Assembly: GCA_022575985.1 (NCBI GenBank)
Contig: JAKSXM010000277.1
Coordinates: forward strand, 372,001 to 436,000
DNA from: Anagrus nilaparvatae
Taxonomy: Eukaryota; Arthropoda; Insecta; Hymenoptera; Mymaridae
Reading direction: 5' to 3'
DNA: 64,000 bases
In this document: positions 12,085 through 62,779 of the stretch, in pieces
Layout: each line of letters begins with the position of its first letter
Position numbering within the stretch: position 1 is the stretch's first letter
Notes under the pieces: model-generated
What the model was told of the DNA's origin: nothing
Databases searched by the model: none
The model's input: the letters and a program-made list of their open reading frames with translations, nothing else
Translations under genes and position numbers: made by a program

Positions 12085-12971
12085 ATAAAAACTCTTATTA
12101 CAGTAAATTAACATACAAGGTTGTTAAGCGTAATCCGATTGATAAATTAAGAAATTTAAACTCTAATTTTTTAAAAAAATGGAATGAAAAGAAATTCCTT
12201 GATAAAGTTTATCATAATAACTACTTATCCCAAAATGATAAAATATTAGCAAGATTTTATGGTCTTATAAAGTTACATAAAGAGGGATTTCCTGTGAGAC
12301 CTGTAGTTCCCATTATTGGAACACCTACTTATTTTCTGGCTAAATTTATAAATAAGATCTTCACAGAAAGTTTTCAAAAGCCTAATTCATACATTACTAA
12401 TAGTGAAATGTTAATTCATAAAATTAAAGATATTATCATTCCTGAAGATTACGTTATGATTTCTTTGGATGTTAAGGCATTATACACTAATTTTCCTCTA
12501 GATTTAATTAAAACTAGTATTAGAAAAAGATTTGCAGACCTAAAAAAAGTTATCCCTAAAAACATGCTACTTAGAGACATATTAAACGCTGTTGAGTTAC
12601 TTTATAACAATACATATTTTTCATTCAATGGTAAATTTTATAAGCAAACTTTTGGAACCCCTATGGGGTCTCCTGTCTCTCCTATTTTAGCTGATATTGT
12701 CATGGCAGATTTGGAAGAAAAATGTTTAAAAAAATTAAATTATAGTCCTATTTTTTACTTTAGGTATGTTGATGACATCTTAACTTGTATACCTAAAGAA
12801 AAAATTGATTATACCTTAAAAATATTCAACTCATACAATAGTCATTTAAAATTTACTCATGAACTTGAGAATAATAAATGTATAAACTTTCTTGAATTAA
12901 CCTTGATTAACAACAATAGCAAATATTATATAACTGGTTTAGAAAAAACACTTCTTCAAATAGATTTTTAA
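12085..12971 (+). pseudogene. Penelope-like reverse transcriptase
   Basis: The frame is open from about 12085, directly after the inverted repeat. The 5' end of the protein is missing, and the first Met (12294) is internal. Motifs: LARFYGLIKLHKEG, RPVVPIIGTPTYFLAKF, ISLDVKALYTNFPL (first catalytic Asp), FGTPMGSPVSPILADIVM, and FRYVDDILTCIP (YVDD catalytic pair near residue 160 counted from 12294). These are the standard Penelope RT blocks. Around 12930-12945 a one-base shift moves the following conserved WFRK...LNF block into the frame of the next feature, so the copy as sequenced does not make a full protein. Confidence 0.85.
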
Positions 12972-13720
12972 ACTTTAATTCTTGCCATACTAAAGCTCAA
13001 AAAGTAGCCATGATCTTTACATTAGTTGACAAAGTATATAAACTGTCTGATAAGAGTTTTCATAAAGAAAATTTAATTAAAATCAAATCATTCTTACTAA
13101 GCAATGCTTATCCGCATAAATTCATTGATTATTACATCAAAAAAAGACTTGATTCTTTGCATTATAAGGAAATGAACTGTAATGATACAGCTATTATAGA
13201 ACTTAATAATATAAATAAGAATAAAATGAATTTATGTATTCCTCAAAGTAATAACAACTTATTTTATATAATTAAAAGAGCTTTTGGACCATATAATGTT
13301 AATGTAATACCTAAGCCTAATTACTTGTTAAATAACTTAATTATAAGAGGCAAAGATCAGCTAAATAAGTTCCAACAAACGCACAAAGTTTATCAAATAG
13401 AATGCAAAGATTGTGATGCCACTTATGTAGGTGAAACAAAAAGAGAATTAGGTATCAGAATCAGTGAACATTTTGATAACTGGAAACTAGATTCTGATAA
13501 ACATAGTGTTGTTACTGAGCATAGAAAAATAGGCCATAGGTTTAATTGGAAAGGTGTTAAAGTTTTAGATACTGAACAGCATTATCACAAAAGAATCTTT
13601 TCAGAATCATTTCATATAAAAAGCCAAAAAAATGGGTTAAATAAACAAGAAGAGTCTAACAAAGTACATCCAGCTTATTGTAAACTTATCTATTTATTAG
13701 AAAGTAATAACATATCATGA
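12942..13720 (+). pseudogene. Penelope-like linker and GIY-YIG endonuclease
   Basis: Continuation of the RT protein after the frameshift. The conserved coding begins before the first Met at 13010. The C-terminal endonuclease has VYQIECKDCDATYVGETKRE (GIY-YIG variant with a Cys pair), then RISEH and VVTEHRKIGHRFNW, matching the catalytic Arg, His and later residues of the family. It ends at 13720, inside the 3' terminal repeat. It is intact after the frameshift. Confidence 0.85.
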
Positions 13721-39605: not shown

Positions 39606-40817
39606 TCATGTATACATTTCACTAAATACGTAATTTTTTACTTTTCTGTTAGCATGATTTACACTTTTATTTAAAAAAATTTTTAATCCTTTCTGTGATC
39701 TAACTCTAGATAAGGCAACGTAAAGTTGACCGTGTGCATAAACGTCTTTACGAAGATCTATACGAATTTTTTTAAAAGTCTGGCCTTGTGATTTGTTTAT
39801 TGTCATAGCAAAAGCTAACCTTATGGGAAATTGGCATCTTTTAAATGTAAAAGGATAATCATTTTCGCAGTACAAAGTAATACGATTTAGAAAAATAATT
39901 TCTTTAGCTCTATCTCCTGTTAAGATTTCGCATTTTAGTAAATGATTTGAAAAATCAAGAATTCTAAGACGTGTTCCATTACACAAACCTTCTTTGATAC
40001 TTATATTTCTAATTAACATAACTATAGAGTGCTGTCGAAGTCTGAGTTCATAGGGTGGTAAACAAATGGGAGATAGTGAGTTTAAGTATTCTGGTAATAT
40101 AGCTTCAGATATATCACCATTATCATCACAATTTTTTACACTATCAATGCTAGTGTAAATGTTCTCAGTACTATCATCTAGTAAATTAACAACATTCTTA
40201 TTAATTTCGTCAACATCAATATTTCTTGCAGACAATATTGCACAATGAGATAATTCTTCATAATTTTTATTTTTTATTATATCACCATAAACATATTCTT
40301 CTATGCCCGTCTCTTCAGTGGCGATAAATGTTTCTGGCAGTTGCATATTATTCTGAAGGTCATTATTTCTTCCATCACCAACACTTAACAAATATTTAGA
40401 AAATTCAATCTCGTCAGGTAATACTCTCATATTTTTGGTTAGCTTAAAGTGTTTGAAATTTTTCCATAAATGACTATATTTTATTGAAAGATTTACATCT
40501 TCACTTCGAGTTCCTCCTATTTTTACAGGTAGTAACTGTCTAAAATCTCCACCTGAAATAATTATTTTTCCACCGAAAGGTAAGTTATTATTCATGAAAT
40601 CTTTTAAAGCTCTGTCTACAATCTCTAAAGTATACCTAGGTGCCATAGGAGCTTCATCCCATATAAAAACATCTGTATCTTTTAGTAACTGAGCTTCCTT
40701 TGATTGAGCTTTAATATTTGATGTCGAATCTGAATAAGTTGGAACGGGGATACCGAATGTTTTATGAGCAGTTTTTCCTCCAGGAAGTAGAATAGCTGCA
40801 ATTCCTGTGTAAGCCAT
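39606..40817 (-). pseudogene. Helitron PIF1-type helicase, C-terminal part
   Basis: Open for 403 codons. Motifs: FIWDEAPMAP (Walker B/motif II), IIISGGDFRQLLPV (motif III), then FAMTINKSQGQTFKKIRIDL and GQLYVALSRVRS (motifs V-VI). These are the standard order for superfamily 1B PIF1 helicases, which unwind DNA during rolling-circle transposition. It is separated from the N-terminal part by a one-base change in an A9 run at 40830-40838. The protein ends at 39606. Confidence 0.85.
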
Positions 40818-41235
40818 TGAACAAACTGCTTTTTTTTTCAGATTTTAATAAATGATAAATTGTGGAATAAACAAAAGTTTTTCCAGATCCTCCTGGACCT
40901 TCAAGGAAAAAGTAACGCGGTTGATTAGGACAATTTTTTTCTAGTGCAGATTTTAAAACCATGTCAACAAATTCTTTTTGTTCTTTGTTAAGTAAATTAT
41001 ATTGATCTTCGCCTTTTTTTTTATGCTCCTCGGGTGATAAATCATCACTATTTTCAGTAATAATTTCTACTGTTTGGTCCATTGACGGAAAATCAGATAA
41101 TGATCGTCCTTCTGCAATTAACATATGACTTATATCTGCATATGCCTTTTTCTCTGCTATCAAAGATGAATATTTTTTAGCATAGACTTCAGCCATAGAA
41201 CTTTTAAATTCTGACCATAGCTCTTCTGGGTGCAA
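40762..41235 (-). pseudogene. Helitron helicase, N-terminal part with Walker A
   Basis: Contains EQKEFVDMVLKSALEKN and FFLEGPGGSGKTFVYSTIY (Walker A GGSGKT). After SEKK the frame runs off into nonsense because of the A-run frameshift, and the other frame continues with the helicase. Upstream it is in frame with the preceding Rep part, separated only by a TGA at about 41236-41238. Confidence 0.85.
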
Positions 41236-41241
41236 GGGTTG

Positions 41242-42192
41242 TCAATGAATTAAAATACGGACAAACAATTGTCGCAGGCTTTTTGGCATCATCCAAAGAC
41301 TTGCTTCTTGTAAAGCTTTTCGCCATTCTTCATCATCTTCAATAAGCCCTAATGTTAAGCAGGTAGCCACAAAAGTAGGGTATATAACTCCATCAATAGT
41401 TCTTAAATCAATGAAATTTTTTGCCCCTCTGACATGCAACAACAATACTCTGAAATGGAATAGCTCAATTTGAGTTGGACTTACGGAATACATTCTTCCA
41501 ATAACATCGAACTTTTGCTGGCGTTTTTCCCATTGCATTTTATTGCTACCGGGAACTTTTTTAAAGGTATAGTAATTCGGAATGTCAGGGTATATATATT
41601 GTCTAGCTTCTGGATCTCTTTCGTTTAAGGCAAAGTAATCCATTAACATTGTTACTTTATTTAAAGCATTTTGAAGCTCTTCATCATTACCATCATTTTC
41701 AATAATTATGCTTTGTTCTTTGGGTAAATGCACTGGTAATCGAATTATGCTGTGACTTTTTTCCTGTAAAGCCTTGTTTAAAATACGCCAGCATGCTTCA
41801 GTAGGACCAACGTACCTGGCTTCAATGTATTGTTTTACTTCGTCGTGTTCAATTATGCTTTCATCAGAATTCTCATTACTGAGGATGATAGATGCTGCAT
41901 CATGCCCTTTGTAAATATATTTATGAATGTATTTTACTGACTTTATGCTTGATACGGCTACTACGTTAATATGACAATCAAAAGTCAGTAATAATTCTGG
42001 ATTATATGGAACAACATGTCTGTTATCTACAATGTAATTGTTTCGTTTCTGATACGTAATTCCAGTATTCCGTCGCCTATAAATAGGATATCCATTTTCA
42101 TCTAATATTGTTTCATCTTGGAAATCCATTGGATAATGTTTAGAACATTTTCCGTTATTTTGGCACCAATCTCCACAAGGGCCATGAATCAT
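41242..42192 (-). pseudogene. Helitron Rep, catalytic-Tyr part
   Basis: Begins MIHGPCGDWCQNNGKCSKH and includes VKYIHKYIYKGHD. This is the Helitron Rep tyrosine block (Y...KY..K), whose two Tyr residues cut and join single strands. It ends at an in-frame TGA, after which the same frame continues as LHPEELW. The stop is therefore a point nonsense mutation rather than a gene end. Confidence 0.8.
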
Positions 42193-42199
42193 ATGAGTG

Positions 42200-43942
42200 T
42201 TAATTCATTAACACTGCATTGTGTAACCGTAAATTCTCTTCAGGTGTTGGAATTTCGGCACAAATATATTTATTAACAATATTGGGAGTTGTAAGTTTAA
42301 ATTGTCTTTTCAGGGTTATTAATAAGTGAATATGCGGTAATCCTCGTTTTTGAAATTCAATAACGTACACATAAGCCAATATCCCAAAAAATTTTTTTTT
42401 AATCATAGAGATCAATTCATTTTTTTTTTCATTAAAAACTCGGGCAACTAGATCAGGACGATCTGCAGCGGTTTGTTCTGGTAATAAATTCTCTTTTATT
42501 TCCGGCCAATTCGGATTACATGTCATCGTTAGAAATATATCCGGTCGGCCATACTTTCGAACGATAGCCATGGAGTCTTGATAACATTGGGTCATATACC
42601 TTGGAGATCCTATGAATGTTGATGGTAATATAACAATTTTTCCAACATGGCCATTGGAACTTATAGCTTTGTTATTTAAATGATCATTTAATCCCTTATA
42701 CGTATCAGCTCTAAGTTTTTTTTGATTAGCTTTAATATATTCAGTTTTGTCATGCTCTATTTTAACATAATTATCTACGACATACTGTTGAGTTAATCTA
42801 CGAGCACAGATAAATGGATTAAATTCGTTTGATCTTATTGCTAATTTATATCTAACATAAGCACATCGAGAAACCCTGCGATTGCTATTTAATCGTTTTA
42901 AATTTCGATGCCAACCTCGATTTCCATATGGATAAAGTAAAGGATATACCCATGGTTCAATGTTTGGATCCATTGAGCTAACATACTGCAATTTATTCGA
43001 ATGAATATTTGTGATTGTTACATAAGATTCCGGAATTTCGCCGTCAGCTGTGGTAGTAAAAACTGCAGCAACTTCATTGCATCTTTGAAAATTAAAACGT
43101 CTTTTATCCGTTCCTGGTTTTAAAGTAAATAATAGCTGTACTTCAGGTGCGCAACTATTGTCATTGTTTGTATTTAATAACTTTTGTTGTTCTTCAATTT
43201 CTTGATTCATCATTTGATAAGACTGAGCAAAAATATTATTCTCTCTGATAAACCCATCTAAAGTTCTAAGAAGTTCGGGATCTAATTTAACTTTTGCATT
43301 TTGATTTATTCTTTGAGTAAGAGCTTCTTTTGGATCCGTAATAAAGAGTTGTCCATAAGTAGGATTTTCATTAACCGCAGGATGCAAAGCTGTATTGATT
43401 CTATTATATATTTGGCCCTGGACTTTAAAACAGTAAGGACCTGGTCTTGTTTTTTTAGAATCCTTGAAAATTTCTCCAGTTTGAAAAGATGCAAAAGCGA
43501 GTGAATTATTGTAAACTCGAATACGTTGGAAAAAAGTGTTCGACTTTTCATGCGAACCATTAAATAAAGATTTAAGGAATACGGGAAACTCGGGCATGGG
43601 TTCTAATTTTACAGCACCATGAGAGCAGCAGTCATTAAATGAACATCCTTTATTCGAAACCTTTTCTGACTCAAAATGCAATGCTCTACAGTAGATACAT
43701 TTGACATTCAATGAACCAAGGTGATGTTGAGTAGGGTTTATATTTGAAAAGTCGATTTCTTCAACATTTCTCAACAGACTATTTCCGCGTTGCATTTCTT
43801 CTTGCGGCACGGAACTAAAAATTCTGTTTGCCTTTATACGATCATACCGACGTTTTTGGGCTAGGGCATTTCGCTCACGCTGTGCTTTTCGAAATTTTTC
43901 CTGTTCTTCAGGAGTTCGATTAATTCGTGGTCGACCCATCAT
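42200..43942 (-). pseudogene. Helitron Rep N-terminal and HUH domain
   Basis: 580 codons. The N-terminus is basic (RTPEEQEKFRKAQRERNAL). A Cys-rich zinc-binding block follows (CIYCRALHF...CC), then YPYGNRGWHRNLKRL, the block PDIFLTMTCNPNWPEIKENL, and FQKRGLPHIHLLITL. The last is the HUH-type metal-binding motif (H-I-H) of Helitron rolling-circle nucleases. The frame breaks at about 42195-42205, right after RLHNAVLMN, and the Rep continues in another frame. Confidence 0.85.
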
Positions 43943-46322: not shown

Positions 46323-46475
46323 TAGAGAGTAAGAATATTGTACTTACTCTGTACCAATTAAAGAAATTCTTGATCTCTGCCATATAATAAATAAATTAAT
46401 TTTAATCAAATATTTCTTTAATTAATACAGAGTATGTACAATATTCTTTAAAATAACAGCAATGAATTTTCCAAA
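46323..46475. repeat. Hairpin repeat, left flank of the virus-like element
   Basis: GAATATTGTACTTACTCTGT at 46332 is inverted at 46430 (ACAGAGTATGTACAATATTC). The block continues to TTTTCCAAA where the Polinton-like element begins. It is a copy of 55590-55760 on the other strand. Confidence 0.75.
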
Positions 46476-46616
46476 AGTAGTATATAAAAGCGGGAGGTTT
46501 GCTCCCGCATGGGGTTTTTTTGGCCTCAGGTACGGATTCTGCTCCCGCATGGGGGTTTTTACGTATCTGCACCCGCATCTGTATAAAGTTATGGCTATGA
46601 AGTTGCTGGTTAAGCG
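46476..46616 (+). repeat. Left terminal inverted repeat
   Basis: 141 bp, about 90% matched to the inverse of 54684-54824. It contains a TATA box at 46481-46490 and three GCTCCCGCAT-type motifs at 46501, 46541 and 46569. Confidence 0.9.
46481..46490 (+). promoter_or_regulatory. TATA box in the left TIR
   Basis: TATATAAAAG, a near-ideal TATA box, five bases inside the element end and pointing inward. The same box is in the right TIR. Transcription from it is inference. Confidence 0.55.
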
Positions 46617-46871
46617 GCACGTGCAAATTTCCAGATGGTTCTATGTTTAGCATTGTAAGTTTTGCTCCCGCATACGGGAAAATTCCTGCACATGTACTTT
46701 TTAACTTTATGTTTGAGATCAAGAGTTCAATAATCTTTTAGTTGTACCCGCTTTTATATGTAAGTTTTACTATTGAAATACTACGTAAGCGGGATTTGAA
46801 AGATTTAGTGTTTACTTCTGCTCCCGCATGTATATTTTCAGTTTTGCAAGGTTCATTTTTTGCTCCCGCAT
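46501..46871 (+). repeat. GCTCCCGCAT motif array
   Basis: Copies at 46501, 46541, 46569 (GCACCCGCAT), 46664, 46820 and 46862; the last three lie inside the TIR boundary on the unique side. The right end has GCCCCCGCAT (54799-54790), GCTCCCGCAT (54759-54750) and GCACCCGCAT (54731-54722) on the minus strand. The last of the left copies sit in a larger direct repeat (46661-46705 and 46859-46904) that adds CCTGCAC(A/G)TGT. These may be binding sites for a replication or transposition protein. Confidence 0.7.
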
Positions 46872-47107
46872 TGGCTAAAATTCCTGCACGTGTGCTTTTT
46901 CAAAAAGTTTGGACAACTAACCCCCCCATTCTTTATCCAATATACTAAACTGGGGGAGAGTTCTTATAAAAATCGAGACGCCAAACGTTTCTTCTTCATT
47001 ATTTTTTTGTCCTCGGCTTCAATCGAGTGTACGAAAAATTATTTACAGTTTATTTAAAATATAAACTATTATTTTTACAGACATTTGAATAAAAAATATA
47101 ATAAAAA

Positions 47108-47814
47108 ATGAAACCCCTAAGGTAAATATTAAAAAAATTATTTTGTAGTTTATAAAAAAATTATTTTAGTTTATTAAAAAATAAAAAAATTTATTTGTTT
47201 ATAGACTTTTGGGAAGAGCATACGATGTTAGCTCATCATGTGAGTTGATTGTGGGCATTTTGATATCCGATGAGCCTGTTGTCCAGATCGTGCTTCGAAA
47301 CTCCAAAGGTTTTGAGGTTGTTTTTGATGAAAATGCTTGGAATGATTTGACAACCAATCGTAAAATTATGGACTATTTTTTTGGGACTAATCCAAAACCT
47401 GACATTTCAAATTTTAATGATTCTGACATACGTATTACATTTATGAAGGTGAAAAAACAACTTGCAATTTCATTTGAAAAGAACGAGCAGAGGGTTACAA
47501 TTCTTGGAGCTACGTATTTTAATATTTTATTCGTAAGCACTGCAGCCAGCATGATATACGAAAGATGCAAGAACCATACCACGGAGATTAAAAATAAATT
47601 TAATGAATTTATGAATGTTATTGATATCAATGATAATAAACATGATGCTTTTAACAAAATTATTCAATCAGACAAGTATCAGAAAAATAATATTATTGAT
47701 TTAGAGGTATCGGCTCTCTGTCTCGATCAAATGCGTGAATACAAAAAAAAAATACTTGAGCAGCCAAATTTTCTGCATCCATTATTAGCTGGATTCCATC
47801 AAAATGGATTATAA
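47108..47814 (+). CDS. Orphan element protein A (spliced, 207 aa)
   Basis: Exon 1 is only 14 nt (47108-47121: ATG plus 11 nt), followed by an 83-nt intron (47122-47204) with GTAAAT donor and TTTATAG acceptor. Exon 2 is 47205-47814. The joined length divides evenly by three and supplies the Met that exon 2 lacks. The protein has no catalytic motif I recognise. It is mostly beta-rich in the first half (ELIVGILIS, VVQIVLRNS) and helical and polar towards the C-terminus. Proteins of this type seem to recur in insect elements of this kind, but I cannot assign a role. It is the only gene on the left that reads rightward, so it may be driven by the left TIR TATA box. Confidence 0.65.
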
Positions 47815-47996
47815 ATATATATATATTTTTTTAATGCTTTTTAAAAAAATGTAACCTGATATAATAATAATAATAATAATAATAATAGTAATAGAGTTTT
47901 CTAAAAAAATAAAATATGTATAACTTTTGTATGAAAAAAAAAAATTAAGGGATTTAAATAAATTGAAAAATATATTAATTTCAAATAAAAGTGTTT

Positions 47997-48491
47997 TTAT
48001 TTCTTTAAAAAAAAAAAAAAAAAAAAATTACAATACATCATTTTTTTCCTTAAATAAAATACATTTCTTAATGCACATATTGGCGATCCCATATTTCCAT
48101 GTTTTAAACACAAAAGTCCTTGATTACAATCATTCTGGATTCTGTATTTTATGTTTAAATCTTCCACATTTATTGCACTGATTCCTCTTTTTGCCAACCA
48201 TATTTTTTTTTCCAATCCTTTTACATAAATTTTTTTTGCACGTCTTAAACTATCGAATAATATATTCGATATTTCTTTGTAAGGTATATAACCTTCTTGC
48301 CATGACAAGCTATGATAATTATGTTTTAACCAATTCACTTGTTTTCTATCTTTTTTAGACAATTTTGAGATATGAAATGGTGGCTTGAATATAAAATGTT
48401 GAATGCTTGATTGACCACTCAAAATAGCCAATTCCTTAAGAATGAAATCCTGACCATGCTTGAAAAATTGTAAATCCACGTAGAAAGACAT
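47997..48491 (-). CDS. Orphan element protein B (about 155-164 aa)
   Basis: True ATG at 48491. It starts MSFYVDLQFFKHGQDFILKE and contains SWQEGYIPY and AKKIYVKGLEKKIWL, a pattern I associate with a widespread uncharacterised insect mobile-element protein. The early Asp-x-Gln on a predicted strand hints at an RNase-H-like fold, but this is speculative. The reading frame has no natural stop after its Cys/His-rich C-terminus (CLKHGNMGSPICAL). It runs through the poly-A tract at 48002-48027 and ends there, so the real C-terminus may differ. It lies 17 bp downstream of the major capsid gene on the same strand. Confidence 0.65.
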   Translation of the reverse strand: MSFYVDLQFFKHGQDFILKELAILSGQSSIQHFIFKPPFHISKLSKKDRKQVNWLKHNYHSLSWQEGYIPYKEISNILFDSLRRAKKIYVKGLEKKIWLAKRGISAINVEDLNIKYRIQNDCNQGLLCLKHGNMGSPICALRNVFYLRKKMMYCNFFFFFFLKK

Positions 48492-48508
48492 TTTGCGACT
48501 GACTAATT

Positions 48509-49726
48509 TTAGACTTGTTTTTCTATTAAATTACTATACGGATTGTAATAAATAACCCGATCGTATAAAATTAAACAATGAGCAACGGTTTTGTTAGGCA
48601 AGGGTGCTGCGAACTCAAATTCAATTCTCAAGTCAATGCTGGAAACTTTTATTGTAGGATCTGAATTAGAACAATTGAAAACTATTAAAGGTGAATCATT
48701 TTTGTAGTCAGTCATGCTTAATTTTTGTTTGCCACTTTCACCGTAATAAGCCAATTGAAATTCAGTAAACATTTGATAGGCTGTTACATATTTTCCACTA
48801 TTAAAGTCCAAATCTAAATTTTCACTGGGATATTGTTGAGAATTTAAAAATAGTCTGCAGTTTCGCAATTGACAATGATCAAATTTACTCATGTCAGCAT
48901 GAATATTTTCATTTCTGTTAGTCTGAAATCCTACAATTACAAATAGTGGTTTATCTATTGGATTGAAATTTCTAATTTGCCAGACTGCTCGATCGTTTGT
49001 AGTAAGATTTGGATTACTGTAATGATCCCATGTTCTGAAAAAAAGAGGAACTTTACGCCCACTCTCTAATATTTTTAACATTCTCAATTTATACGGATCA
49101 ATAACTTCGACTTTAGGCAAACGCCATGCCATTTTTATTATTTCTATATCAAGATCTGTAATAGGCGTCTGTCCAGCACCGACCTGTTGATAAATGCAAT
49201 TTTTGTCACTTCGACTTCTGACAAAAACCAACTGCATCGGACTAAATATAATTATTTTATCGAAATCTTCAAAAATACCCATCAATTTTTTCATTGGCAC
49301 GCATAGATAGATCATTTCATTTTTTACAACAGTCATTTGACTGGTACCCATTTCACTCAGTTGTGCAGTCTCTGCATAGGTCTCTGAAACTGCTGATTTC
49401 ATGGATACTGTGACTCCTGGGTTTCGAATCTCATCAATTGTATGTCCATTTAATTCAAGTCTTATTTCGCTAAATAAAAATAATAAGAAATTTTTTGACA
49501 ATGTAACTTCGTTTACGGTTGCTGGAGCTATATCTTTTAATTTTGCTTCTATGTATAAGTAACTTTCGTGCGGGTATATGAAAGATGACTGATCTTGAAC
49601 GGCAATTCGTATCTCATCGGATTTCTTGAGTCCTGAATTGGCAAACGGTAAGAAACTTTGAACTTGTATTCTTGTTATACTTTCATCTTTTTTTATAGGA
49701 TCAAGTATATTTAAAATGTGCGACAT
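48509..49726 (-). CDS. Major capsid protein, double jelly-roll type
   Basis: 405 aa from ATG 49726. It fits the capsid protein of Polinton/adintovirus-like insect elements: DEIRIAVQDQSSFIYPHESY near residue 36, LFSEIRLELNGHTIDEIRNP near 88, a mid-protein SGRKVPLFFRTWDHYSNP, and the C-terminal strand pair VSSIDLRIEFEFAAPLPNKT followed by YDRVIYYNPYSNLI. Such proteins form the hexon-like trimers of the shell. The frame is intact, with no stop or shift. It is encoded just upstream of protein B and downstream of protein C in a leftward gene block with the minor capsid, protease and PLA2 genes. Confidence 0.8.
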   Translation of the reverse strand: MSHILNILDPIKKDESITRIQVQSFLPFANSGLKKSDEIRIAVQDQSSFIYPHESYLYIEAKLKDIAPATVNEVTLSKNFLLFLFSEIRLELNGHTIDEIRNPGVTVSMKSAVSETYAETAQLSEMGTSQMTVVKNEMIYLCVPMKKLMGIFEDFDKIIIFSPMQLVFVRSRSDKNCIYQQVGAGQTPITDLDIEIIKMAWRLPKVEVIDPYKLRMLKILESGRKVPLFFRTWDHYSNPNLTTNDRAVWQIRNFNPIDKPLFVIVGFQTNRNENIHADMSKFDHCQLRNCRLFLNSQQYPSENLDLDFNSGKYVTAYQMFTEFQLAYYGESGKQKLSMTDYKNDSPLIVFNCSNSDPTIKVSSIDLRIEFEFAAPLPNKTVAHCLILYDRVIYYNPYSNLIEKQV

Positions 49727-49738
49727 TTTTATTTTTTT

Positions 49739-49948
49739 TTATAAGTATTTTTTTTTATAAGTATTATTAACAATGTAACCCAAGGATTTTAGAAAAAGCA
49801 CGTTTTTTTGAGATAACGTTTTAATTTTTGCTGGGTTTGAAATTACTGGTGCTGCTGCTGCTGCAGATGCGGATGATCTGTTTTCGACACTTGTCGACAA
49901 ATTAATGACATCATCGTAGCAATTTCTTTGATTATATATTATTGGCAT
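49739..49948 (-). CDS. Small conserved-looking protein C (69 aa)
   Basis: ATG at 49948 overlaps the last codons of the minor capsid gene by 10 nt, which suggests translational coupling or a shared transcript. An Ala/Ser-rich middle (SSASAAAAAPV) leads to a C-terminal KTLSQKNVLFLKSLGY, a short motif I have seen in proteins from related elements. Possibly a minor virion component or peptide. No function can be assigned. Confidence 0.55.
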   Translation of the reverse strand: MPIIYNQRNCYDDVINLSTSVENRSSASAAAAAPVISNPAKIKTLSQKNVLFLKSLGYIVNNTYKKKYL

Positions 49949-50664
49949 TTTCGCAGATGTAAAAGAACTACAGAATTTTCACCTCTGAAATCAATTAGCG
50001 AATCGGCTTGGTCGCAAAGGCGAATTTGAATGTTGTCGATCGTTCGAGTGTGAATCGGCAAATAAATTACATGTGTTGGATTCTCGATTATTTTATACCC
50101 TGGAGAGACATTGGGGAAAAATTCATACAATGTATGTGATGCTTCTCCATTACTAAAGCTATTATGAACTATATTGCATTGAACACGTATAGATTCGACG
50201 TTCAATATATTTACGAGATTTTGAGACTCGTATTTTTTAAATGCATCTAATTTGACTGGGTCAAAGCCCAAAATCGAACCAATATTTCTTTCTTTTTCAA
50301 AGTCAATTTTATATCGAGAGTAGACTTGCGAGCGCAACGTTTGATGATTAGCAGTAATGTAAAGCGGCTGGTCAATAAGCTCTTTCGGTGCGGTTTCTGG
50401 CAACGAATTATTCTTATGGCGTTCCTTCAGCTCGAGGTTCAAAAAATTTTCAATATCTTCCAATTCGTAGCTGCCTTCTACAATTTCTATATGTTTATTC
50501 TCGTCATACCAAAACAAATTATTAGTTTTATTTATGTTTGCAATCGAGAACCAACAGGATAGTCCTGTTAGACCAATTTCGTAATCACATGTCAAATTAA
50601 TCGGGGGAAAAAAATCCGCTGACAGCACCGATTCGGTACCATTAAGTTGTATCGTAAAACTCAT
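49939..50664 (-). CDS. Minor capsid (penton-like) protein
   Basis: Start chosen at ATG 50664 (MSFTIQLNGTESVLSADFFP); the frame is open a little further but without ATG. 241 aa. The C-terminus carries LYEFFPNVSPGYKIIENPTH and VIYLPIHTRTIDNIQIRLCD, then DFRGENSVVLLHLR, the signature block of Polinton-type minor capsid proteins. These form the vertex (penton) with a single jelly roll. Intact. It sits between protease and major capsid genes, the usual morphogenesis neighbourhood. Confidence 0.78.
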   Translation of the reverse strand: MSFTIQLNGTESVLSADFFPPINLTCDYEIGLTGLSCWFSIANINKTNNLFWYDENKHIEIVEGSYELEDIENFLNLELKERHKNNSLPETAPKELIDQPLYITANHQTLRSQVYSRYKIDFEKERNIGSILGFDPVKLDAFKKYESQNLVNILNVESIRVQCNIVHNSFSNGEASHTLYEFFPNVSPGYKIIENPTHVIYLPIHTRTIDNIQIRLCDQADSLIDFRGENSVVLLHLRKCQ

Positions 50665-50693
50665 TCTTGTAAATGAAAGTTTTTTCACTCAGC

Positions 50694-51008
50694 TTAGTCT
50701 TTTAAGGATTTTAAGAAGCGTATACAAAGCTGGCCACAGTTACTTGAGCCAAAAGTTTGAAATTGATTGCGATTGTATATGATGGTTACTTTAGGCCCCA
50801 TGTAATCAATAAATTCCACTGGTGGTTCAATATTTCCAAAACTATCAAAATATTTTACTAAATTTCCACGTTTGGAGTAGGAAACCCAGTGGCTACCTTG
50901 ATTAGCTGACGAATCTAAATTTAATATGCCATCCTCGTTTCTGTATGGTTTATTCGGCAACCTGTCTTTCATAAAGACACCTCGAAAGTATTTGATCCCT
51001 TTGGTCAT
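50694..51008 (-). CDS. Maturation cysteine protease, adenain/Ulp1-like
   Basis: 104 aa from the only Met (51008). Catalytic residues are in place: His40 in GSHWV, Asp55 in YFDSFG, and Cys91 in SNCGQLC. YFRGVFMKDRLP is the family's N-terminal block. Such proteases mature the capsid by cutting scaffold or core proteins. The conserved sequence begins before the Met: the frame is open upstream through GPTTDEQLIS and into an A15 tract at 51055-51069. The same tract is read by the preceding PLA2 gene in another frame. The true N-terminus may therefore come from a frameshift or slippage product or an unseen exon. Confidence 0.8.
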   Translation of the reverse strand: MTKGIKYFRGVFMKDRLPNKPYRNEDGILNLDSSANQGSHWVSYSKRGNLVKYFDSFGNIEPPVEFIDYMGPKVTIIYNRNQFQTFGSSNCGQLCIRFLKSLKD

Positions 51009-51021
51009 TGAAATGAGTTGC

Positions 51022-51771
51022 TCATCGGTTGTGGGACCTTTTAAAGAAGGTAAATTTTTTTTTTTTTTTAATGCATTTGGTCTTTATCTTTTTTTTTCTG
51101 ATTCCTGCTCCTTTTATTTTTTTTTTCTTATTTTTCTTGGATTTGATACCACTGCCTGCATATTTCTTGTACGGTTTGAGATGCAATCCCTTACCTTGCT
51201 TTTTTTTCATCATATCGCGTATCGTTTTATATAAGGTTACACCACCTACAATTCCATGAATAGCAGGCAAGAGAAATCCTCGTCCGAGTTTCGATTTTTT
51301 CGCTTGCTTCTTGCTCCTTTTTTTTCGCATTCCCATGCCTAAGAATTTTTTTGCTCCGATTATCGAGGTAACACCAGAGGCAGCGAGTTTTTCGCCAAGA
51401 CTTGCGTCCTTTGCTCGTATCCTCTCCTTCGCTGCTTGAATCAATTGTTGATCGGCCTTATGTCGAGTTTCTAAATCCGAATTCTCGTAATAAGCAATAT
51501 CATGTAGTTTGCACGCTGAATCAAGTGGATTTATACCTTTATCGCCTCTAGCCAATCTTTCAGGAACCTTAGTCCCCGGCCCGCACCTAAGGTGGAGGGG
51601 AGGGGATGGTTAGCATTAAATAAATTTAATTTTAAATTTTGATTTTTTGAATTTTTTTTTTTTTTACCAATTATATCCTTTTATGTGAAATTCCCAGGGC
51701 AACTTGTTAATTATTGTATTAATAATTCCCCTACCTCTTGGTCTAGCAACTGATAAATTTCTACTAATCAT
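51022..51771 (-). CDS. Phospholipase A2, parvovirus VP1u-like (spliced)
   Basis: Exon 1 is 51771-51668 (34 codons plus two bases), the intron 51667-51587 (81 nt: GTAAAA donor, branch-like GCTAAC, pyrimidine tract, TTAG), exon 2 51586-51022. Total 669 nt, 222 aa. The Ca2+-binding loop Cys-Gly-Pro-Gly follows immediately after the splice junction. The catalytic His-Asp pair lies in LDSACKLHDIAYY. Virion-associated PLA2 domains of this kind breach endosomal membranes in parvoviruses; here that role is inference. The C-terminal third is very basic and Lys-rich. Without the intron no start codon precedes the Ca2+ loop, which supports the splice model. Confidence 0.78.
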
Positions 51772-51891
51772 AACTGCTTCATTTGCTAGCCTTTTATACA
51801 CTATCAAAAGAACGCTATTTGCACGCGATTATATAAATCATTAGTAATGCAATTTTTTATTTAGTTTAAACGTAACATTGAATCCATCAAA
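51772..51891. promoter_or_regulatory. Divergent promoter region
   Basis: Only 120 bp separate the start of the leftward PLA2 gene from the rightward ATPase start. The interval is AT-rich and includes TTTTATACA (minus-strand TATA-like TGTATAAAAG at 51801-51792) about 20 bp upstream of the PLA2 ATG. It probably holds both promoters. Confidence 0.45.
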
Positions 51892-52575
51892 ATGAGAGTT
51901 GTGCGTCAACCTTCGAAAATTGAAATAATAAATTTTGCTGTTTCTGACAAGCACAAGCTCAGGCTTTTTCAAAACGTACCAAATAATATTAGGGCTATCG
52001 TTTCGGGGCCAAGCAACATTGGAAAGACATACGCTTTAGTCAGTTTATTGTTATCTGAAAATGGTCCACCATTTTTAAATTCATACTTATACTCGACAAC
52101 TTTATTTCAAGATATTTACAATTATTATAGATACGTTTTAACGGGAATTGAAGGGTTTGGTTATTTTGAAAGCCCAAACTGTGATAACGTCGTTAGACCA
52201 AGTCAGGCTAAACCTTTTAGCGTAGTACTTTTCGATGATGTGTCTGGTGAAGATAAATCAGTAATTAATGAATATTTTACTCATGGAAGGCATTATAATC
52301 AGAGCTGTTTTTTCTTATGTCAAAGTTACACCTGTTCCGATAAGCATGCAATTAGAGATAATGCAAATTACCTTGTAATTTTCCGACAAGATGAATTAAA
52401 TTTGTTAAACTTATATAAGAATCACGTAATTGGAGACATGACATTCAAACAGTTTGTAGACATGTGCTCGTTTGCCTGGAATACCGAAGAGTATGCTTTT
52501 CTTGTAATAGACAAAGAACTCGGATTGGCGAATGGGCGTTATAAAGTAGGATTTAATGATCATATAATCCTGTAA
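51892..52575 (+). CDS. FtsK/HerA-type genome packaging ATPase
   Basis: 227 aa from ATG 51892. Walker A GPSNIGKT at residues 39-46, Walker B VVLFDD at 111-116, and a later FFLCQSYT segment near 140 in the sensor position. Size and motif spacing fit the A32-like packaging ATPases of Polintons, adintoviruses and relatives, which pump DNA into the capsid. Intact. It heads the rightward gene block, with the next gene 37 bp downstream. Confidence 0.85.
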   Translation: MRVVRQPSKIEIINFAVSDKHKLRLFQNVPNNIRAIVSGPSNIGKTYALVSLLLSENGPPFLNSYLYSTTLFQDIYNYYRYVLTGIEGFGYFESPNCDNVVRPSQAKPFSVVLFDDVSGEDKSVINEYFTHGRHYNQSCFFLCQSYTCSDKHAIRDNANYLVIFRQDELNLLNLYKNHVIGDMTFKQFVDMCSFAWNTEEYAFLVIDKELGLANGRYKVGFNDHIIL

Positions 52576-52612
52576 AAATTAGCAGTTTGCAGTCAGATGT
52601 CAAACTATCAAC

Positions 52613-53166
52613 ATGAATTTTAAAGACGAGAAAATAGCTGAAGAAATTGAGCGAACTCAACAAATTATACGAAAAAAAATGAACGTGCTGAAAGAAAAAT
52701 ATTCAAACGAGGACGCAAGTTTTGCTAAATTATACAAGCCAATTATTGACCCGCTTGAAAATATTGCTAAAAAATATAATAATAATGATAATAATAATAA
52801 TATTAATAATAATAATAATAATAATAATGTCAATAGTGAAATTAAAAGTTCGGATAAAATAAAAAATGATAGTAAAAAGAGAAAAATTTTTGACGTATCT
52901 TCAATTTTAGCATCACATTCAAAATATCCAAATAAAAGACTCCATGAAAATCCTGAGTTTGAAAACGCGGAGTTTATAGCACTTGACAACAACAACAATA
53001 CAAATTTTGAACAGCATGCAAACGCTGCTTCAAATTTTAATGTTAATGAGCAGCGTGACATACATGAAGCGCCTCAAATAAATGACGTTGATGATGATGG
53101 CGTTGGAGTTGACGACGACGAAGACGTCGTCGACGTCGACGCCAACGACGACAATGATGATGCTGC

Positions 53167-53198
<32 letters not shown>

Positions 53199-53916
53199 AT
53201 TATTACGATGATGCAATGGAAACTTTAAATCTATCTGATTATTTGGAAACTATACATCCCTTGCCTCGCTCATATCTCGAAAATTTTTACAAAAATTCGA
53301 AAAATTCTGACTCGGTTTATGGTCCATACGTTAAAGATGACGAAAGGCTTTTTTTAGGTAACAAGTCATTGACATTTGCATCAAATGGAGATGTGGTAAT
53401 TGGTAATGAATTCAGGTATCCGGCTAGCAATGGTTTATATCATTTATTATTTATAAAGGAACCTGTACGTGACAGGTACACGGATTTGGATAAGGAAAAT
53501 TACCTTGAAATAATGAGACATACTGGTGCACATTTAAACAAAGCAGGTCGCATTAAAAGCAGTGTAAATGAAAAGTATAGAACATTAATTTCAGCATTGT
53601 CAAAAAAAAAGACAAAAAATAACCACACAGGGCAGGGATTATTTGAAAAAAAAAAAAAAAATTGGAAAGATTCAATGGGGTTTTCGTTGAAATGCCCAAA
53701 TTACAGACTAATGTAGTTCGACTGGATGGGAGACCAAAGCAATTTGTTTACTTTGACGATCCGAATGAGCTTGTCCAACGTCTCAGACTTTTGGTTAGCG
53801 AAAAGCAGGCGGGAAATACGAGCGTTGACTCAGAAATTGCATCCATTATAGAAGAACTCGCTGAGCTAAAAATTATTATAAATAAGAGTGCGAGAACAAA
53901 AATTATGTCATTTTAA
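52613..53916 (+). CDS. Orphan element protein D, frame broken at an A16 tract
   Basis: Frame 1 (52613-53716) starts with a helical block IIRKKMNVLKEKY, then Asn runs encoded by (AAT)n, then an Asp/Ala-rich acidic middle (GAT/GCT repeats). A conserved-looking half follows: SDSVYGPYVKDDERLFLGNK, NGLYHLLFIKEPV, and TGAHLNKAGRIKSS. After GQGLFEKKKK the frame becomes meaningless. The conserved ending VYFDDPNELVQRLRLL ... IIEELAELKIII lies in the -1 frame (53662-53916). The switch is in the A16 run at 53646-53661. Related insect proteins have both halves in one chain. Role unknown; the gene follows the ATPase. Confidence 0.65.
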
Positions 53917-53918
53917 AG

Positions 53919-54257
53919 ATGCCTGTAGACAAGTTTGGATTGAGTGAGGTTAAAAAACGAAAAGGCGACTCATTTTCTTTTTATGAATCTGGAAAATGGC
54001 ACAAGTTTTATAAATCCATTACGCTTGAGCAAGAAATTATAAGCCAAAAAATCAAGGAGCTCGCTAATCAAGTTAGCAGTTTAAACATTAAAAAAATTTA
54101 TGAAGTTGAAAATTTAATTAAAAACGCTATCAATTCTGGCATAGAAAAAAATTTTAAAAGTACTCTTACAGCTCAGCAACTTGAGTTTCTCTTAGGAAAC
54201 GATGAAAAAGTGAGAAAAATTAGAGAAGAATTTGAAATAATTCTAGTTTTATATTAG
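53919..54257 (+). CDS. Orphan element protein E (112 aa)
   Basis: ATG 53919, two bases after the stop of protein D's second frame, so it probably shares its transcript. Starts MPVDKFGLSEVKKRKGDSFS. The middle is a probable coiled coil (LEQEIISQKIKELANQVSSL). Some Polinton-like elements have a short protein beginning with a DKFG motif, but no function is known to me. A fibre- or tail-like structural protein is one guess. Confidence 0.5.
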   Translation: MPVDKFGLSEVKKRKGDSFSFYESGKWHKFYKSITLEQEIISQKIKELANQVSSLNIKKIYEVENLIKNAINSGIEKNFKSTLTAQQLEFLLGNDEKVRKIREEFEIILVLY

Positions 54258-54555
54258 AAATAAAATAAGATTCGTCTTTGAAAAATAAAAAATCATCGAT
54301 AGTATTAATATCTAACATATGAATAAAGTGAATAAAATGTCTTGATGCAATTTCTTGAAGACTGCGAATTTCATTTATTTTTAAACAATTACACTCAATA
54401 TTCATTTTTTTTAGCAAGAGAAACTCAAGACTGCAAGGTACGGGCCAACAACAAAATATTTTTTTCATCTCTTTAACAGGTTTTCGCCTCTTCCTCTTAA
54501 CGCACGCGATTTTTATACGTGTGTTAAAAGAATCTATACTTTCGATCGCGAGCAT
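54220..54555 (-). CDS. Hypothetical protein F (about 111 aa)
   Basis: ATG 54555 (an upstream GTG extends the frame by 7 codons). It overlaps the 3' end of protein E on the other strand by 38 nt. The sequence is basic (VKRKRRKPVKEMKKIF) with a CNCLKINEIRSLQEIASRHF segment that faintly recalls a SOCS-box start. I would not claim that. It could be a chance frame, but its position just inside the right TIR mirrors gene A at the left. Confidence 0.3.
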   Translation of the reverse strand: MLAIESIDSFNTRIKIACVKRKRRKPVKEMKKIFCCWPVPCSLEFLLLKKMNIECNCLKINEIRSLQEIASRHFIHFIHMLDINTIDDFLFFKDESYFISNIKLELFQILL

Positions 54556-54629
54556 AAATTTTTTTTTAAAATACACGTGCAGGTATTTTTTTCTTAGCGG
54601 GTCAGGCTTAAAACCACGAGTTAAAAATG

Positions 54630-54646
54630 GGGGGGGGGGGGGAGGG
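54630..54646 (+). repeat. Poly-G tract
   Basis: A run of about 14 G interrupted by one A. The left subterminal region has a matching but shorter C7 run at 46919-46925. Both lie near a CCTGCACGTGT sequence (left 46884 region, right minus strand 54585-54575). Confidence 0.5.
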
Positions 54647-54683
54647 GTAGTGATTAATTAATTGCATTAAAATTTTCAAGTCA

Positions 54684-54824
54684 CGCTTAACCAGCAACTT
54701 CATAGCCATAAGTTTATACAGATGCGGGTGCAGGTACGTGAAAAATCCCATGCGGGAGCAGAATCCGGACCTGACACCTAAAAAACCCCATGCGGGGGCA
54801 AACCTCCCGCTTTTATATACTACT
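54684..54824 (-). repeat. Right terminal inverted repeat
   Basis: Inverse of 46476-46616, with the inward TATA box at 54819-54810 and three GCNCCCGCAT motifs. Confidence 0.9.
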
Positions 54825-54830
54825 TCCAAA

Positions 54831-56760
54831 TTTAACAATTTAAATATATTTTTCTTAAATCTCCATTTTAATTAAAGAAAAGAAATATATTTTAATTCTG
54901 TAGAATAATGAAATGAGTATAAGGTAATGCAAGCATTTCAACCGTACTCTGAGCTTCGAGTTTCGAAGGAACATTTATTTTTACTGAAAAAAATACTGAG
55001 ACTCGAAGCCCAGAGTACGGTTGGAATGCCTGCATTGCCCTTCACTCATCCCTTTATGCTCCAGATTTGAAATATATTTATTTCTTTAAAATAACAATGG
55101 AGATTTAGATAAAGAATATTGTACTTAATCTGTACCAATTAAATAAATACTTGAATGTAATTCATTTACTTATTATATTGCAGGGAGGATGCAGGGATCA
55201 ATAAGTATTTCTTTAAAATTAAAGTATTTCTTTAAAATTAAAGAAATACTTATTGATCCCTGCAATATAATAAGTAAATGAATTACATTCAAGTATTTTT
55301 TTAATTGGTTCAGATTAAGTACAATATTCTTTATCTAAATCTCCATTGTTATTTTAAAGAAATATATTTCAAATCTGGAGCATAAAGAGATGAGAGAAAG
55401 GCAATGCAGGCATTCCAACCGTACTCTGGGCTTCGAGTCTCAGTATTTTTTTCAGTAAAAATAAATGTTTCTTCTAAACTCGAAGCTCAGAGTACGGTTG
55501 AAATGCTTGCATTACCTTATACTCATTTCGTTATTCTCCAGAATTGAAATATATTTCTTTTCTCTAATAACAATGGAGATTTCAGAAAAATATACTTATA
55601 TTGTTAAATTTGGAAAATTCATTGCTGTTATTTTAAAGAATATTGTACATACTCTGTATCAATTAAAGAAATATTTGATTAAAATTAATTTATTTATTAT
55701 ATTGCAGAGATCAAGAATTTCTTTAATTGGTACAGAGTAAGTACAATATTCTTTAAAATAACAAAAATAAATTTTCCAATTTTAACAATTTAAATATTTA
55801 TTAGCAATATATTTTTCTGAAATCTCTATTGTAATTTTAAAGAAAAAAAAATATATTTCAATTCTGGAGAGTAATGAAATGAGTAAAAGGCTATGCCAGC
55901 ATTTCAACCGTACTCTGGGCTTCGAGTTTAGAAAGAACATTTATTTTTATTGAAAGAAATTCTAAAACTCGAAGCTCAGAGTACGGTTGAAATGTTGGCA
56001 TTGCCTTTGACTCATTTCATTATTCTCCAGGATTGAAATATATTTCTTTTCTTTAATTAAAATGGAGATTTCAGAAAAATATATATAAATTGTTAAATTT
56101 GGAAAATTCATTGCTGTTATTTCTGTAACAAGTACCAAGTACAGAGTGTGTTTATTTGTTTTTTTGACATCATAATTTTGGGCCTTTTAAACAAAAATTA
56201 ATATTTTAGTCTCTCAAATAAATAAAAAATCTAAAAAATTTAAATAACTTTATGCTCATGTGCTTTAATCGAAAAATAAATATTTACTTACCAAGATGAT
56301 GCAATAGATAATCCTAAATTTTTACAAAAATTTTTTTGGAGCACTACTAAAGACTGCAATTGTTGCAAAAAATTTTGTGTGGCACACTGTATTTAATTCA
56401 CAATTACAATCAATAAATTTTTCAAATAATATTTCATTAATTAATAAATTAATATCTCTTATTTATAAAAAACATAAGATATAGCAATTCAGAAGAAAAC
56501 ATTTTATATATATGATGCAATCATTTATTTATATGTATTTGTTGCGTATAAGTGACGACAACAGCGCACCGGTTGAAATGCTTGCAGTACCTTTCACTCA
56601 TCTCTTTATGCTCCAGATTTGAAATATACTTCTTTAAGATAACAATGGAGATTTAGATAAAGAATATTGTACTTAATCTGAACCAATTAAAAAAATACTT
56701 GAATGTAATTCATTTACTTATTATATTGCAGGGATAACCTAAAGATCACATGGAGTCAAA
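54831..56760. repeat. Hairpin/foldback repeat array, right flank of the element
   Basis: Several head-to-head units. CAACCGTACTCTGAGCTTCG and its inverse CGAAGC(C/T)CAGAGTACGGTTG form 100-bp hairpins at 54944-55024, 55419-55500 and 55908-55990. A larger palindrome is centred near 55230 (54885-55225 against 55235-55580). 55590-55760 is the inverse of the left flank 46330-46475 joined to the right flank and gives the empty site. The 55465-55740 frame is a repeat artefact. 56130-56560 is AT-rich, and 56570-56745 is another partial unit. Confidence 0.7.
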
Positions 56761-61559: not shown

Positions 61560-62779
61560 CTATGCATAATAACGCTTAAGAGCTCAATCTCTCATCATCT
61601 TGTGTTGATCTTAAATAATTTTTAATGCGTATCAACACTGAGAATGATCTCTCGCCTGTACAATTACTCACCATCATACTCATAAAAATACGTAGTGCAA
61701 TGTGCACATTTGGATATACTAGGTCATAGTGATTTTCACAAACAAACTTGCACATCTCAAAATGAGATGCTTTCTCCATAAGATTGATTTGCAAGTGTTC
61801 TTTGAAATGTAACAACTCAATATATAGATTTTTATCTAAGTCGTTTGGGTAACGCTCCTTCAGATCAAATAATTTGTTTTTTAATTTTTCGTTATCTAAA
61901 TTTTTCAACTGCGTCAAAAATCCAAAAGAAAAATTTAATGCACCATATACTTCATATCTCTTTTGTAAATTAAGTAAAAGACTATCCAAAATAACGTAGA
62001 AAACATTGCATCTTATATTATTTGATCCATCAAAATGGCTTTCATTGGTATTATTGATTTCATCAAATGGAGTTTTTCGAAGTCTTTGTCGAGAAATATC
62101 TTTTTTATATTGATTTACTCCAATTTTTTCTTTTGCCTTTGTTTCATAATCAGTAAATATAGTTTAGTCATAACGCATATTACTATAAAATTCTATTAAT
62201 GATTGGTAAAGCTGTACTACAATACTAATGTCAGCAGTTGGAGATTGCAAAAGCTTACTTACATTCTATTACAATCTATTTAAAATATCATTCCATACCA
62301 AATTATGAAACAAAATTCTAAGGAATTAAATTTGTTATGTAATCCCCTAGCTTCTGATCGAACAGCAGGCTTTTCTGTTTTATCATTTTCAAATATACTT
62401 AAGGAAGAAAGAACTTCATCCCAAGAATCTTGCAAGCTTTTACAACCATCAGCGTGTTCTAACCATCTTGTTGTAGAAAGATTTTTTATGCAATTCTTAT
62501 TTGGCTTGCAAGATTCAAGAACTTCCCATCTATCAGTAGATGCAGAAAAAAAAGTATAAATTTTTTGAATTGTAGAAAAATAAGTTACTGCTTCTGTACA
62601 ACATTCTGCAGCACATTTTCCAACTAAATTAAGAGAATGAGCTGCAGAGGGAACATAATCAGCTTTGGAATTAATTTCACGAATACAAACTTGAACCCCT
62701 GTGTATTACTGACATATTACTCGCATTATCATCAGTGCTGTTAAATCGGCGGAGTTTTGCTCCTGAAATATATTCTATG
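61560..62779 (-). pseudogene. hAT transposase, C-terminal two-thirds (broken)
   Basis: The open part 61989-61576 carries the hAT dimerisation block: YPNVHIALRIFMSMMVSNCT, then GERSFSVLIRIKNYLRST. Upstream, in other frames, are FFSASTDRWEVLRSC, STTRWLEHADGCKSLQDSWD and GLHNKFNSLEF, which belong to the same ZMYM/DUF4371-type hAT transposases (RNase-H-fold DDE core plus dimer region). Stops and shifts near 62160 and 62280 inactivate it. Upstream of 62780 a SINE has inserted. Confidence 0.75.

What the first reader, a model, noticed from the sequence alone, without database searches (positions are those of the whole stretch)
46476..54824. Complete-ended 8.3-kb Polinton-like element with virion genes but no polymerase or integrase
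Both ends, the target duplication and the empty site are present, so this is a whole unit rather than a fragment. It has major and minor capsid proteins, maturation protease, packaging ATPase and a PLA2, yet nothing resembling a family B polymerase or RVE integrase fits the remaining space. Either it is a satellite-like packaged element using another element's replication proteins, or one of its orphan genes replaces them.
Basis: partly seen in the sequence, partly recalled or inferred. Interest (0 to 1): 0.92.

Follow-up and report, generated by a model that had tools for sequence, protein, structure and literature searches.

The report
Small capsid-only Polinton-type viral element
A complete 8.3-kb virus-like DNA element, probably in an animal genome, has genes for a virus shell but no recognisable enzymes to copy or insert itself, so it probably borrowed them from a larger relative; genomes of similar content have been noted before.

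Summary
Window 46476-54824 (8,349 bp) is bounded by terminal inverted repeats beginning AGTAGT, an end motif reported for vertebrate Mavericks (Polintons), and by a 6-bp target duplication. A pre-insertion site 95% alike over 240 bp lies 0.7 kb away. It carries a double-jelly-roll capsid protein, a packaging ATPase, a PLA2-like protein and a weakly supported protease. All 28 listed ORFs of 50 aa or more overlapping it were scanned; none resembles a polymerase, integrase, Rep, primase or helicase, and no gap between predicted genes exceeds 632 bp.

New here: protein A is probably not a replacement replicase. Its low-confidence model best matches proteins of two insect-associated adintoviruses. 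Homologues of A and of the capsid protein lie on contigs of equal length (6,579 bp), probably one contig. Nine TGCTCCCGCAT-like motifs occur in the window, all in the element's ends, pointing inward. Two introns are predicted.

Best reading: a non-autonomous, virion-module-only relative of Polintons/adintoviruses, replicated and integrated in trans. The decisive test (longer sister copies in the host genome) could not be run: the genome search did not complete. A one-off internal deletion remains open.

The parts
46470..46475 (.). left target-site duplication TCCAAA
46476..46630 (+). left terminal inverted repeat, begins AGTAGT; TATATAAAAG (TATA-box-like, recalled) at its tip
   Evidence: 133 of 145 outer positions identical to the right end
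46500..46871 (+). six inward-pointing TGCTCCCGCAT-like motifs (46500, 46540, 46568 with 1 mismatch, 46663, 46819, 46861); the first three lie in the terminal repeat
   Evidence: 9 in the window, all in the element's ends; 0.18 expected
47108..47121 (+). predicted first exon of gene A (ATG), donor AAG|GTAAAT
   Evidence: inferred from sequence, no transcript
47205..47814 (+). gene A, main exon; PUR/Whirly-like fold predicted at low confidence, resembles proteins of insect-associated adintoviruses
   Evidence: homologue P0047, 50%; model; fold matches
47997..48491 (-). protein B, 164 aa, no family found; 3 of 200 random sequences have a stop-free frame of 164 or more
48509..49726 (-). [quoted passage not shown]
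   Evidence: PF21738 E=9.1e-82; 46 homologues; Faustovirus capsid chain 5j7o only at E=0.18
49739..49948 (-). 69-aa ORF between the capsid gene and the 249-aa gene
   Evidence: no family above cut-off
49939..50688 (-). 249-aa protein, candidate minor capsid (penton) by position only
   Evidence: no significant match
50694..51008 (-). candidate Ulp1/adenain-type maturation protease; the ORF's first ATG may not be the true start
   Evidence: Peptidase_C5 E=0.059 (below cut-off); 6lj9 E=0.027; the open frame runs upstream of the ATG
51022..51586 (-). PLA2-like protein, second predicted exon
   Evidence: PF08398 E=1.3e-6 on the ORF 51022-51555; acceptor CCTTAG|GTG
51668..51771 (-). PLA2-like protein, predicted first exon (ATG at 51771); 81-bp intron 51587-51667
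   Evidence: inferred, no transcript
51772..51891 (.). 120-bp divergent gap between the two gene arrays; the likeliest single breakpoint if this is a deletion derivative
   Evidence: inference
51892..52575 (+). packaging ATPase, FtsK/A32 type, 227 aa
   Evidence: Pox_A32 E=2.1e-6
52613..53716 (+). protein E, 367 aa, low-complexity middle; its frame ends shortly after a 16-A run at 53646
53662..53916 (+). protein F, 84-aa ORF that probably continues E in another frame
   Evidence: described only, not read through
53919..54257 (+). protein G, 112 aa; its length alone is not significant
   Evidence: 84 of 200 random sequences have a stop-free frame of 118 or more
54670..54824 (-). right terminal inverted repeat, with three inward-pointing motifs at 54722, 54750 and 54790
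54825..54830 (.). right target-site duplication TCCAAA
55489..55728 (-). paralogous empty site, 95.4% over 240 bp across the insertion point

Best explanation
This is a complete, once-mobile but non-autonomous element of the Polinton/adintovirus kind that has kept only the virion module (major capsid, packaging ATPase, PLA2, probably protease and minor capsid) and an accessory protein with a possible nucleic-acid-binding fold. It was copied and inserted by the PolB and integrase of a co-resident full-length relative acting in trans on its ends, the integrase leaving the 6-bp duplication; its DNA could then be packaged in its own capsid. Shown: the ends, the duplication, the empty site, the capsid and ATPase genes, and the lack of any recognisable polymerase or integrase. 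Inferred: use of a helper's enzymes, packaging in its own shell, and the role of the terminal motifs as recognition sites.
For: AGTAGT/ACTACT ends with a 6-bp duplication are a motif and duplication length reported for vertebrate Mavericks (PMC8097293), so a Polinton-type integrase probably inserted it although it encodes none. No polymerase- or integrase-like ORF (28 of 28 scanned) and no room for one. Capsid ORF intact and 97% identical to P0001, another copy or allele. A capsid relative (57%) and a gene-A relative (50%) both lie on contigs of 6,579 bp; if this is one contig, the pair has persisted through long divergence. Nine motif copies confined to the ends. The capsid clade of 11 of 47 rows has 100/100 support.
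Against: No helper with the same ends was seen; the TIR patterns found nothing in viral contigs and the host genome could not be searched. Gene content is known for one copy only. E and F are in different frames next to a 16-A run, and the left and right repeats differ at 12 of 145 positions, so this copy may be ageing. The gene layout fits a single central deletion at 51772-51891 as well.
Confidence: 0.5

Rival explanations
1. One-off internal deletion of a normal 13-17 kb Polinton: one deletion between the two divergent gene arrays removed PolB and integrase together. The copy was inserted with its relatives' enzymes and is not a lineage.
For: The two arrays point away from each other around a 120-bp gap. 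Intact vertebrate Mavericks keep PolB with the ATPase in one array and integrase with the capsid genes in the other, both arrays usually facing the centre; in one toad they point away (PMC8097293). My reading: in such an outward layout both genes could lie centrally, and one deletion would suffice. A distant capsid relative (L001, 29%) is followed by a 620-aa ORF that looks like a PolB N-terminus (this name is recalled: Pfam found only a Rho_N domain and the PDB nothing significant).
Against: No fragment of polymerase or integrase was found; the L001 ORF has no tblastn match in the window (N-terminal part only). The genes on both sides of the gap look complete, including a predicted start exon for PLA2.
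Confidence: 0.3
2. One segment of a divided (bipartite) Polinton: a partner element with the same ends carries PolB and integrase, and the two travel together.
For: The reciprocal state exists: in a set of 72 Polintons, nine without a capsid gene also lack protease and ATPase (PMC4028283). Segmented genomes occur among PolB-bearing bidnaviruses (PMC11071296).
Against: No partner seen; nothing here separates a partner from an ordinary helper.
Confidence: 0.08
3. Autonomous small virus: B, E/F or G is an unrecognised replicase or recombinase.
For: B, E/F and G have no usable family match.
Against: All are small (164, 367 plus 84, and 112 aa), E is partly low-complexity, and the Maverick-type ends and 6-bp duplication are better explained by a Polinton integrase (inference).
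Confidence: 0.07
4. Assembly artefact: a collapsed or misjoined longer element.
For: AT-rich sequence with several homopolymers; the reads were not seen.
Against: Perfect 22-bp ends, exact duplication, matching empty site and tightly packed genes.
Confidence: 0.05

Closest known systems
Polintons / Mavericks (Polintoviricetes)
   Same: AGTAGT ends, 6-bp duplication, double jelly-roll capsid, packaging ATPase, probable Ulp1-type protease, two gene arrays on opposite strands
   Different: No PolB, no RVE integrase; 8.35 kb against 12.7-24.6 kb for intact vertebrate elements; two predicted introns, whereas intact vertebrate Mavericks had none (PMC8097293, passages)
Insect-associated adintoviruses (Drosophila-associated adintovirus 2; Bos-associated insect adintovirus)
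   Same: Protein A's model matches their uncharacterised protein and 'MOSUB' best in BFVD (E 2.6e-4 and 5.0e-4, 16% identity each)
   Different: The three Drosophila-associated members are 13.3-14.6 kb; no. 1 encodes PolB and integrase and no. 2 an almost identical set (PMC8363768, passages); this element has neither
Meldviruses without recognisable PolB and integrase (PMC11071296)
   Same: Adenovirus-class virion proteins without recognisable PolB or integrase (passages)
   Different: The example in its Figure 7 legend, Meld19810, has a primase-helicase and a tyrosine recombinase instead; none is found here
Polinton-like viruses and virophages of protists
   Same: Small and capsid-bearing; Polinton-like viruses mostly lack PolB and RVE integrase
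   Different: Those mostly encode other replication proteins (PMC11071308, passages); none found here

Membership tests
Polinton/Maverick | AG-type terminal motif (AGTAGT) and 6-bp target duplication | tested here: met
   motif as given for vertebrate Mavericks in PMC8097293
[quoted passage not shown]
   PF21738 E=9.1e-82
Polinton/Maverick | FtsK-type packaging ATPase | tested here: met
   Pox_A32 E=2.1e-6, above Pfam's cut-off
Polinton/Maverick | Ulp1/adenain-type protease | tested here: inconclusive
   E=0.059 in Pfam (below cut-off), E=0.027 in PDB
[quoted passage not shown]
   249-aa ORF in a fitting place, no significant match
[quoted passage not shown]
   28 of 28 ORFs scanned, longest gap 632 bp
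Polinton/Maverick | RVE integrase | tested here: not met
Polinton/Maverick | size of intact vertebrate elements, 12,723-24,620 bp | tested here: not met
   8,349 bp; range from PMC8097293
Polinton/Maverick | intronless genes (reported for intact vertebrate elements) | tested here: inconclusive
   two introns predicted from sequence only
Adintovirus | PolB with OTU-like domain, and integrase with chromodomain | tested here: not met
   definition from PMC11071296
Adintovirus | hexon recognisable by BLASTp to adintovirus hexons | not tested
   no named adintovirus hexon was on hand
Satellite of a Polinton helper | dependence on a helper that shares the ends | not testable with these tools
   The genome search unanswered in 16 of 16 tries
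Polinton-like virus of protists | alternative replication protein (SF1/SF3 helicase, primase, other polymerase) | tested here: inconclusive
   no such Pfam match in 28 of 28 ORFs, but B, E/F and G are orphans

The most novel reading that the evidence does not exclude
An animal counterpart of virophage-type parasitism inside the Polinton world: a stable lineage of short elements that carry the virion genes but use the polymerase and integrase of sister elements with the same ends, possibly as one half of a divided genome.
Probability: 0.25. Interest if true: 0.85.

Novelty: new variant of a known kind. Interest (0 to 1): 0.52.

Why it matters
Polintons have been read as viruses that also transpose. 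Loss of the virion genes with retention of the rest is on record (nine elements, PMC4028283); this is the reverse state, with both ends and the integration scar. That survey removed elements shorter than 10 kb as incomplete (PMC4028283), so this class would have been filtered out of it. If other copies share the layout, animals host packaged Polinton parasites, and one can ask in a single genome which helper moved them.

Tried and rejected
Host genome search for copies: the same request, with the capsid protein as query, was sent 16 times and never answered. Viral contigs: all 8 scans used (capsid protein, capsid alignment, two TIR patterns, L001 PolB-like ORF, ATPase, A alignment, PLA2): none confirmed a relative. 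Bacterial/archaeal contigs: 1 confirmed locus of 39 stretches that matched a pattern (L001).

The protein search with E failed (6222 candidates, none at E<=0.001), probably because its middle is low-complexity. The model of B (163 residues, made without its first residue and without an alignment) is poor (mean pLDDT 50.6), and its BFVD matches (best E=0.57) mean nothing. Weak names set aside as chance: CAGE1 (E=0.0051), Phage_RpbA (0.028) and M3, DUF2076 (0.01, on the PLA2 protein), AnkK (E=0.00041 but 19.1 bits against a cut-off of 650), immunoglobulin-binding protein A. That sequence-profile search of A in the PDB gave no PUR or Whirly protein, so the fold match has no support from sequence. 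In plain Foldseek the lowest E-values for A went to a chain of an NHEJ complex (0.012), myosin/XRCC4 and XRCC4 entries, with TM-scores near 0.15; I set these aside because I think they follow the low-confidence helical part. Faustovirus capsid (E=0.18) is in the expected direction but not significant. From memory I thought that B and E/F resemble proteins common beside such capsid genes in invertebrates; no call confirmed it and I do not use it.

Considered and rejected: dating the insertion from the differences between the two TIRs, because their divergence at insertion is unknown.
Full report
Anatomy. The element spans 46476-54824 (8,349 bp). Its two ends are inverted copies: the outer 22 bp are identical, 133 of 145 outer positions agree, and similarity fades after about 155 bp. 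The outermost bases are AGTAGT. TCCAAA lies on both sides. The element sits inside a cluster of diverged inverted repeats, and another arm of that cluster, at 55489-55728 on the minus strand, matches the joined flanks at 95.4% over 240 bases across the insertion point. This is an insertion with its scar and an unoccupied paralogous site.

Genes. Leftward array: PLA2-like protein, protease candidate, 249-aa protein, 69-aa ORF, major capsid protein, protein B. Rightward array: ATPase, E/F, G. Gene A lies alone near the left end, pointing right. 6,598 of 8,349 bases (79%) lie in predicted coding parts. Within the arrays neighbouring ORFs overlap or are 2-37 bp apart (one predicted 81-bp intron aside); the largest gaps are 632 bp (left end), 567 bp (right end), 182 bp and 120 bp. 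The capsid protein is the firmest call (PF21738 E=9.1e-82; 46 homologues). ATPase and PLA2 pass Pfam's cut-offs. Protease and minor capsid remain candidates. By length alone capsid, E, the 249-aa protein, ATPase, A and PLA2 exceed the longest stop-free frame in each of 200 random sequences (175), and B's stop-free frame (177) just does; G and the ORF at 54220-54576 do not.

Introns. The open frame of A starts without an ATG, but an ATG exon ending in a donor (AAG|GTAAAT) is separated by 83 bp from an acceptor (TTTATAG|A) that joins in frame. In the PLA2 gene, an 81-bp GT...AG stretch separates an ATG exon from the exon that contains CGPGTK, which looks like the calcium loop of such proteins (recalled). 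These are predictions. Intact vertebrate Mavericks were reported without introns (PMC8097293).

Missing enzymes. All 28 listed ORFs of 50 aa or more that overlap the element were scanned against Pfam, at E up to 1 or 0.1. None matched a polymerase, integrase, Rep, primase, helicase or recombinase; weak chance-level names are listed under Tried and rejected. PHROGs and NCBIfam scans of 10 of these ORFs each gave none either; the nearest was a terminase large subunit at E=0.014 for the ATPase. The PolB-like N-terminal ORF of L001 has no tblastn match in the window at E up to 1, while the L001 capsid protein does (2.5e-46). No integrase sequence was used as a query; its absence rests on the Pfam scans and on space.

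Cis signals. TGCTCCCGCAT (up to 1 mismatch) occurs 9 times in 64 kb: 6 in the left 400 bp and 3 in the right repeat, all pointing inward (0.18 expected, 0 of 100 shuffles reach 9). These are candidate recognition sites for whatever replicates or integrates the element. Three on each side lie in the repeats and are copies of each other, so the 9 are not independent.

Relatives. The tree of 47 capsid rows (window, 45 of 46 homologues, L001; P0005 was dropped as shorter than 380 aa) puts the window with P0001 (97%) in a clade of 11 rows with 100/100 support; none of the other ten has an organism name. Three of the 46 homologues bear an organism name: Psylliodes, Aquatica and Diabrotica, all beetles (recalled). 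The host is therefore probably an arthropod, not proven. The alignment A1 used 26 of the 46. The clade is diverse, but the neighbours of its other members could not be read.

Mechanism. The ends and the 6-bp duplication match those reported for vertebrate Mavericks (PMC8097293, passages). Since no integrase is encoded, one from another element most simply made the insertion. Replication by a helper's protein-primed polymerase on shared ends follows by analogy with the family. Packaging by its own ATPase and capsid is inferred from gene content. Whether the present short form is a propagating lineage or a single deletion product is not decided; I give 0.5 against 0.3.

Prior knowledge. Passages read: PMC11071296 notes adenovirus-class virion proteins in genomes without recognisable PolB and integrase, and lists, for other replicase-less viruses, alternatives like those considered here (host factors, unknown replicase, undetected segment, parasitism on another virus's replicase). 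PMC4028283 removed elements below 10 kb and describes nine Polintons lacking the virion set. PMC8097293 gives sizes, ends and layout. PMC8363768 gives Drosophila adintovirus sizes and genes. PMC11071308 gives the gene sets of Polintons and protist relatives. A search for phrases naming non-autonomous or defective Polintons/Mavericks together with a second such term returned no paper, and the listings (titles and abstract starts) showed no report of a complete-ended virion-only element in animals; these lists are partial where they were capped, and only open-licence PMC papers are covered. The Starrett adintovirus paper was not held, and Repbase was not searched.

Noticed in passing
window 39606-43942 (-): Helitron remnant or copy: Helitron_like_N (E=2.9e-62) and PIF1 helicase (E=1.8e-44) in separate ORFs.
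   Followed up: partly
window 12294-13720 (+): Penelope-like retroelement: reverse transcriptase ORF followed by a GIY-YIG ORF; the family name is recalled.
   Followed up: partly
window 61576-61989 (-): hAT transposase C-terminal piece (Dimer_Tnp_hAT E=2.1e-6).
   Followed up: no
window 54825-56735 and 46331-46475: Cluster of nested, diverged inverted repeats (arms up to 260 nt, 75-99% complementary) into which the element inserted; it may be a foldback or MITE-type array.
   Followed up: partly
window 53646-53661: A run of 16 A's where the frame of protein E passes to that of F; it could be a mutation, an assembly error or programmed slippage.
   Followed up: no
L001 246-4120: 4.1-kb contig filed in a Balneolales MAG encodes a double jelly-roll capsid protein of this family and a PolB-like N-terminal ORF (name recalled); probably contamination by eukaryotic or viral DNA.
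   Followed up: partly
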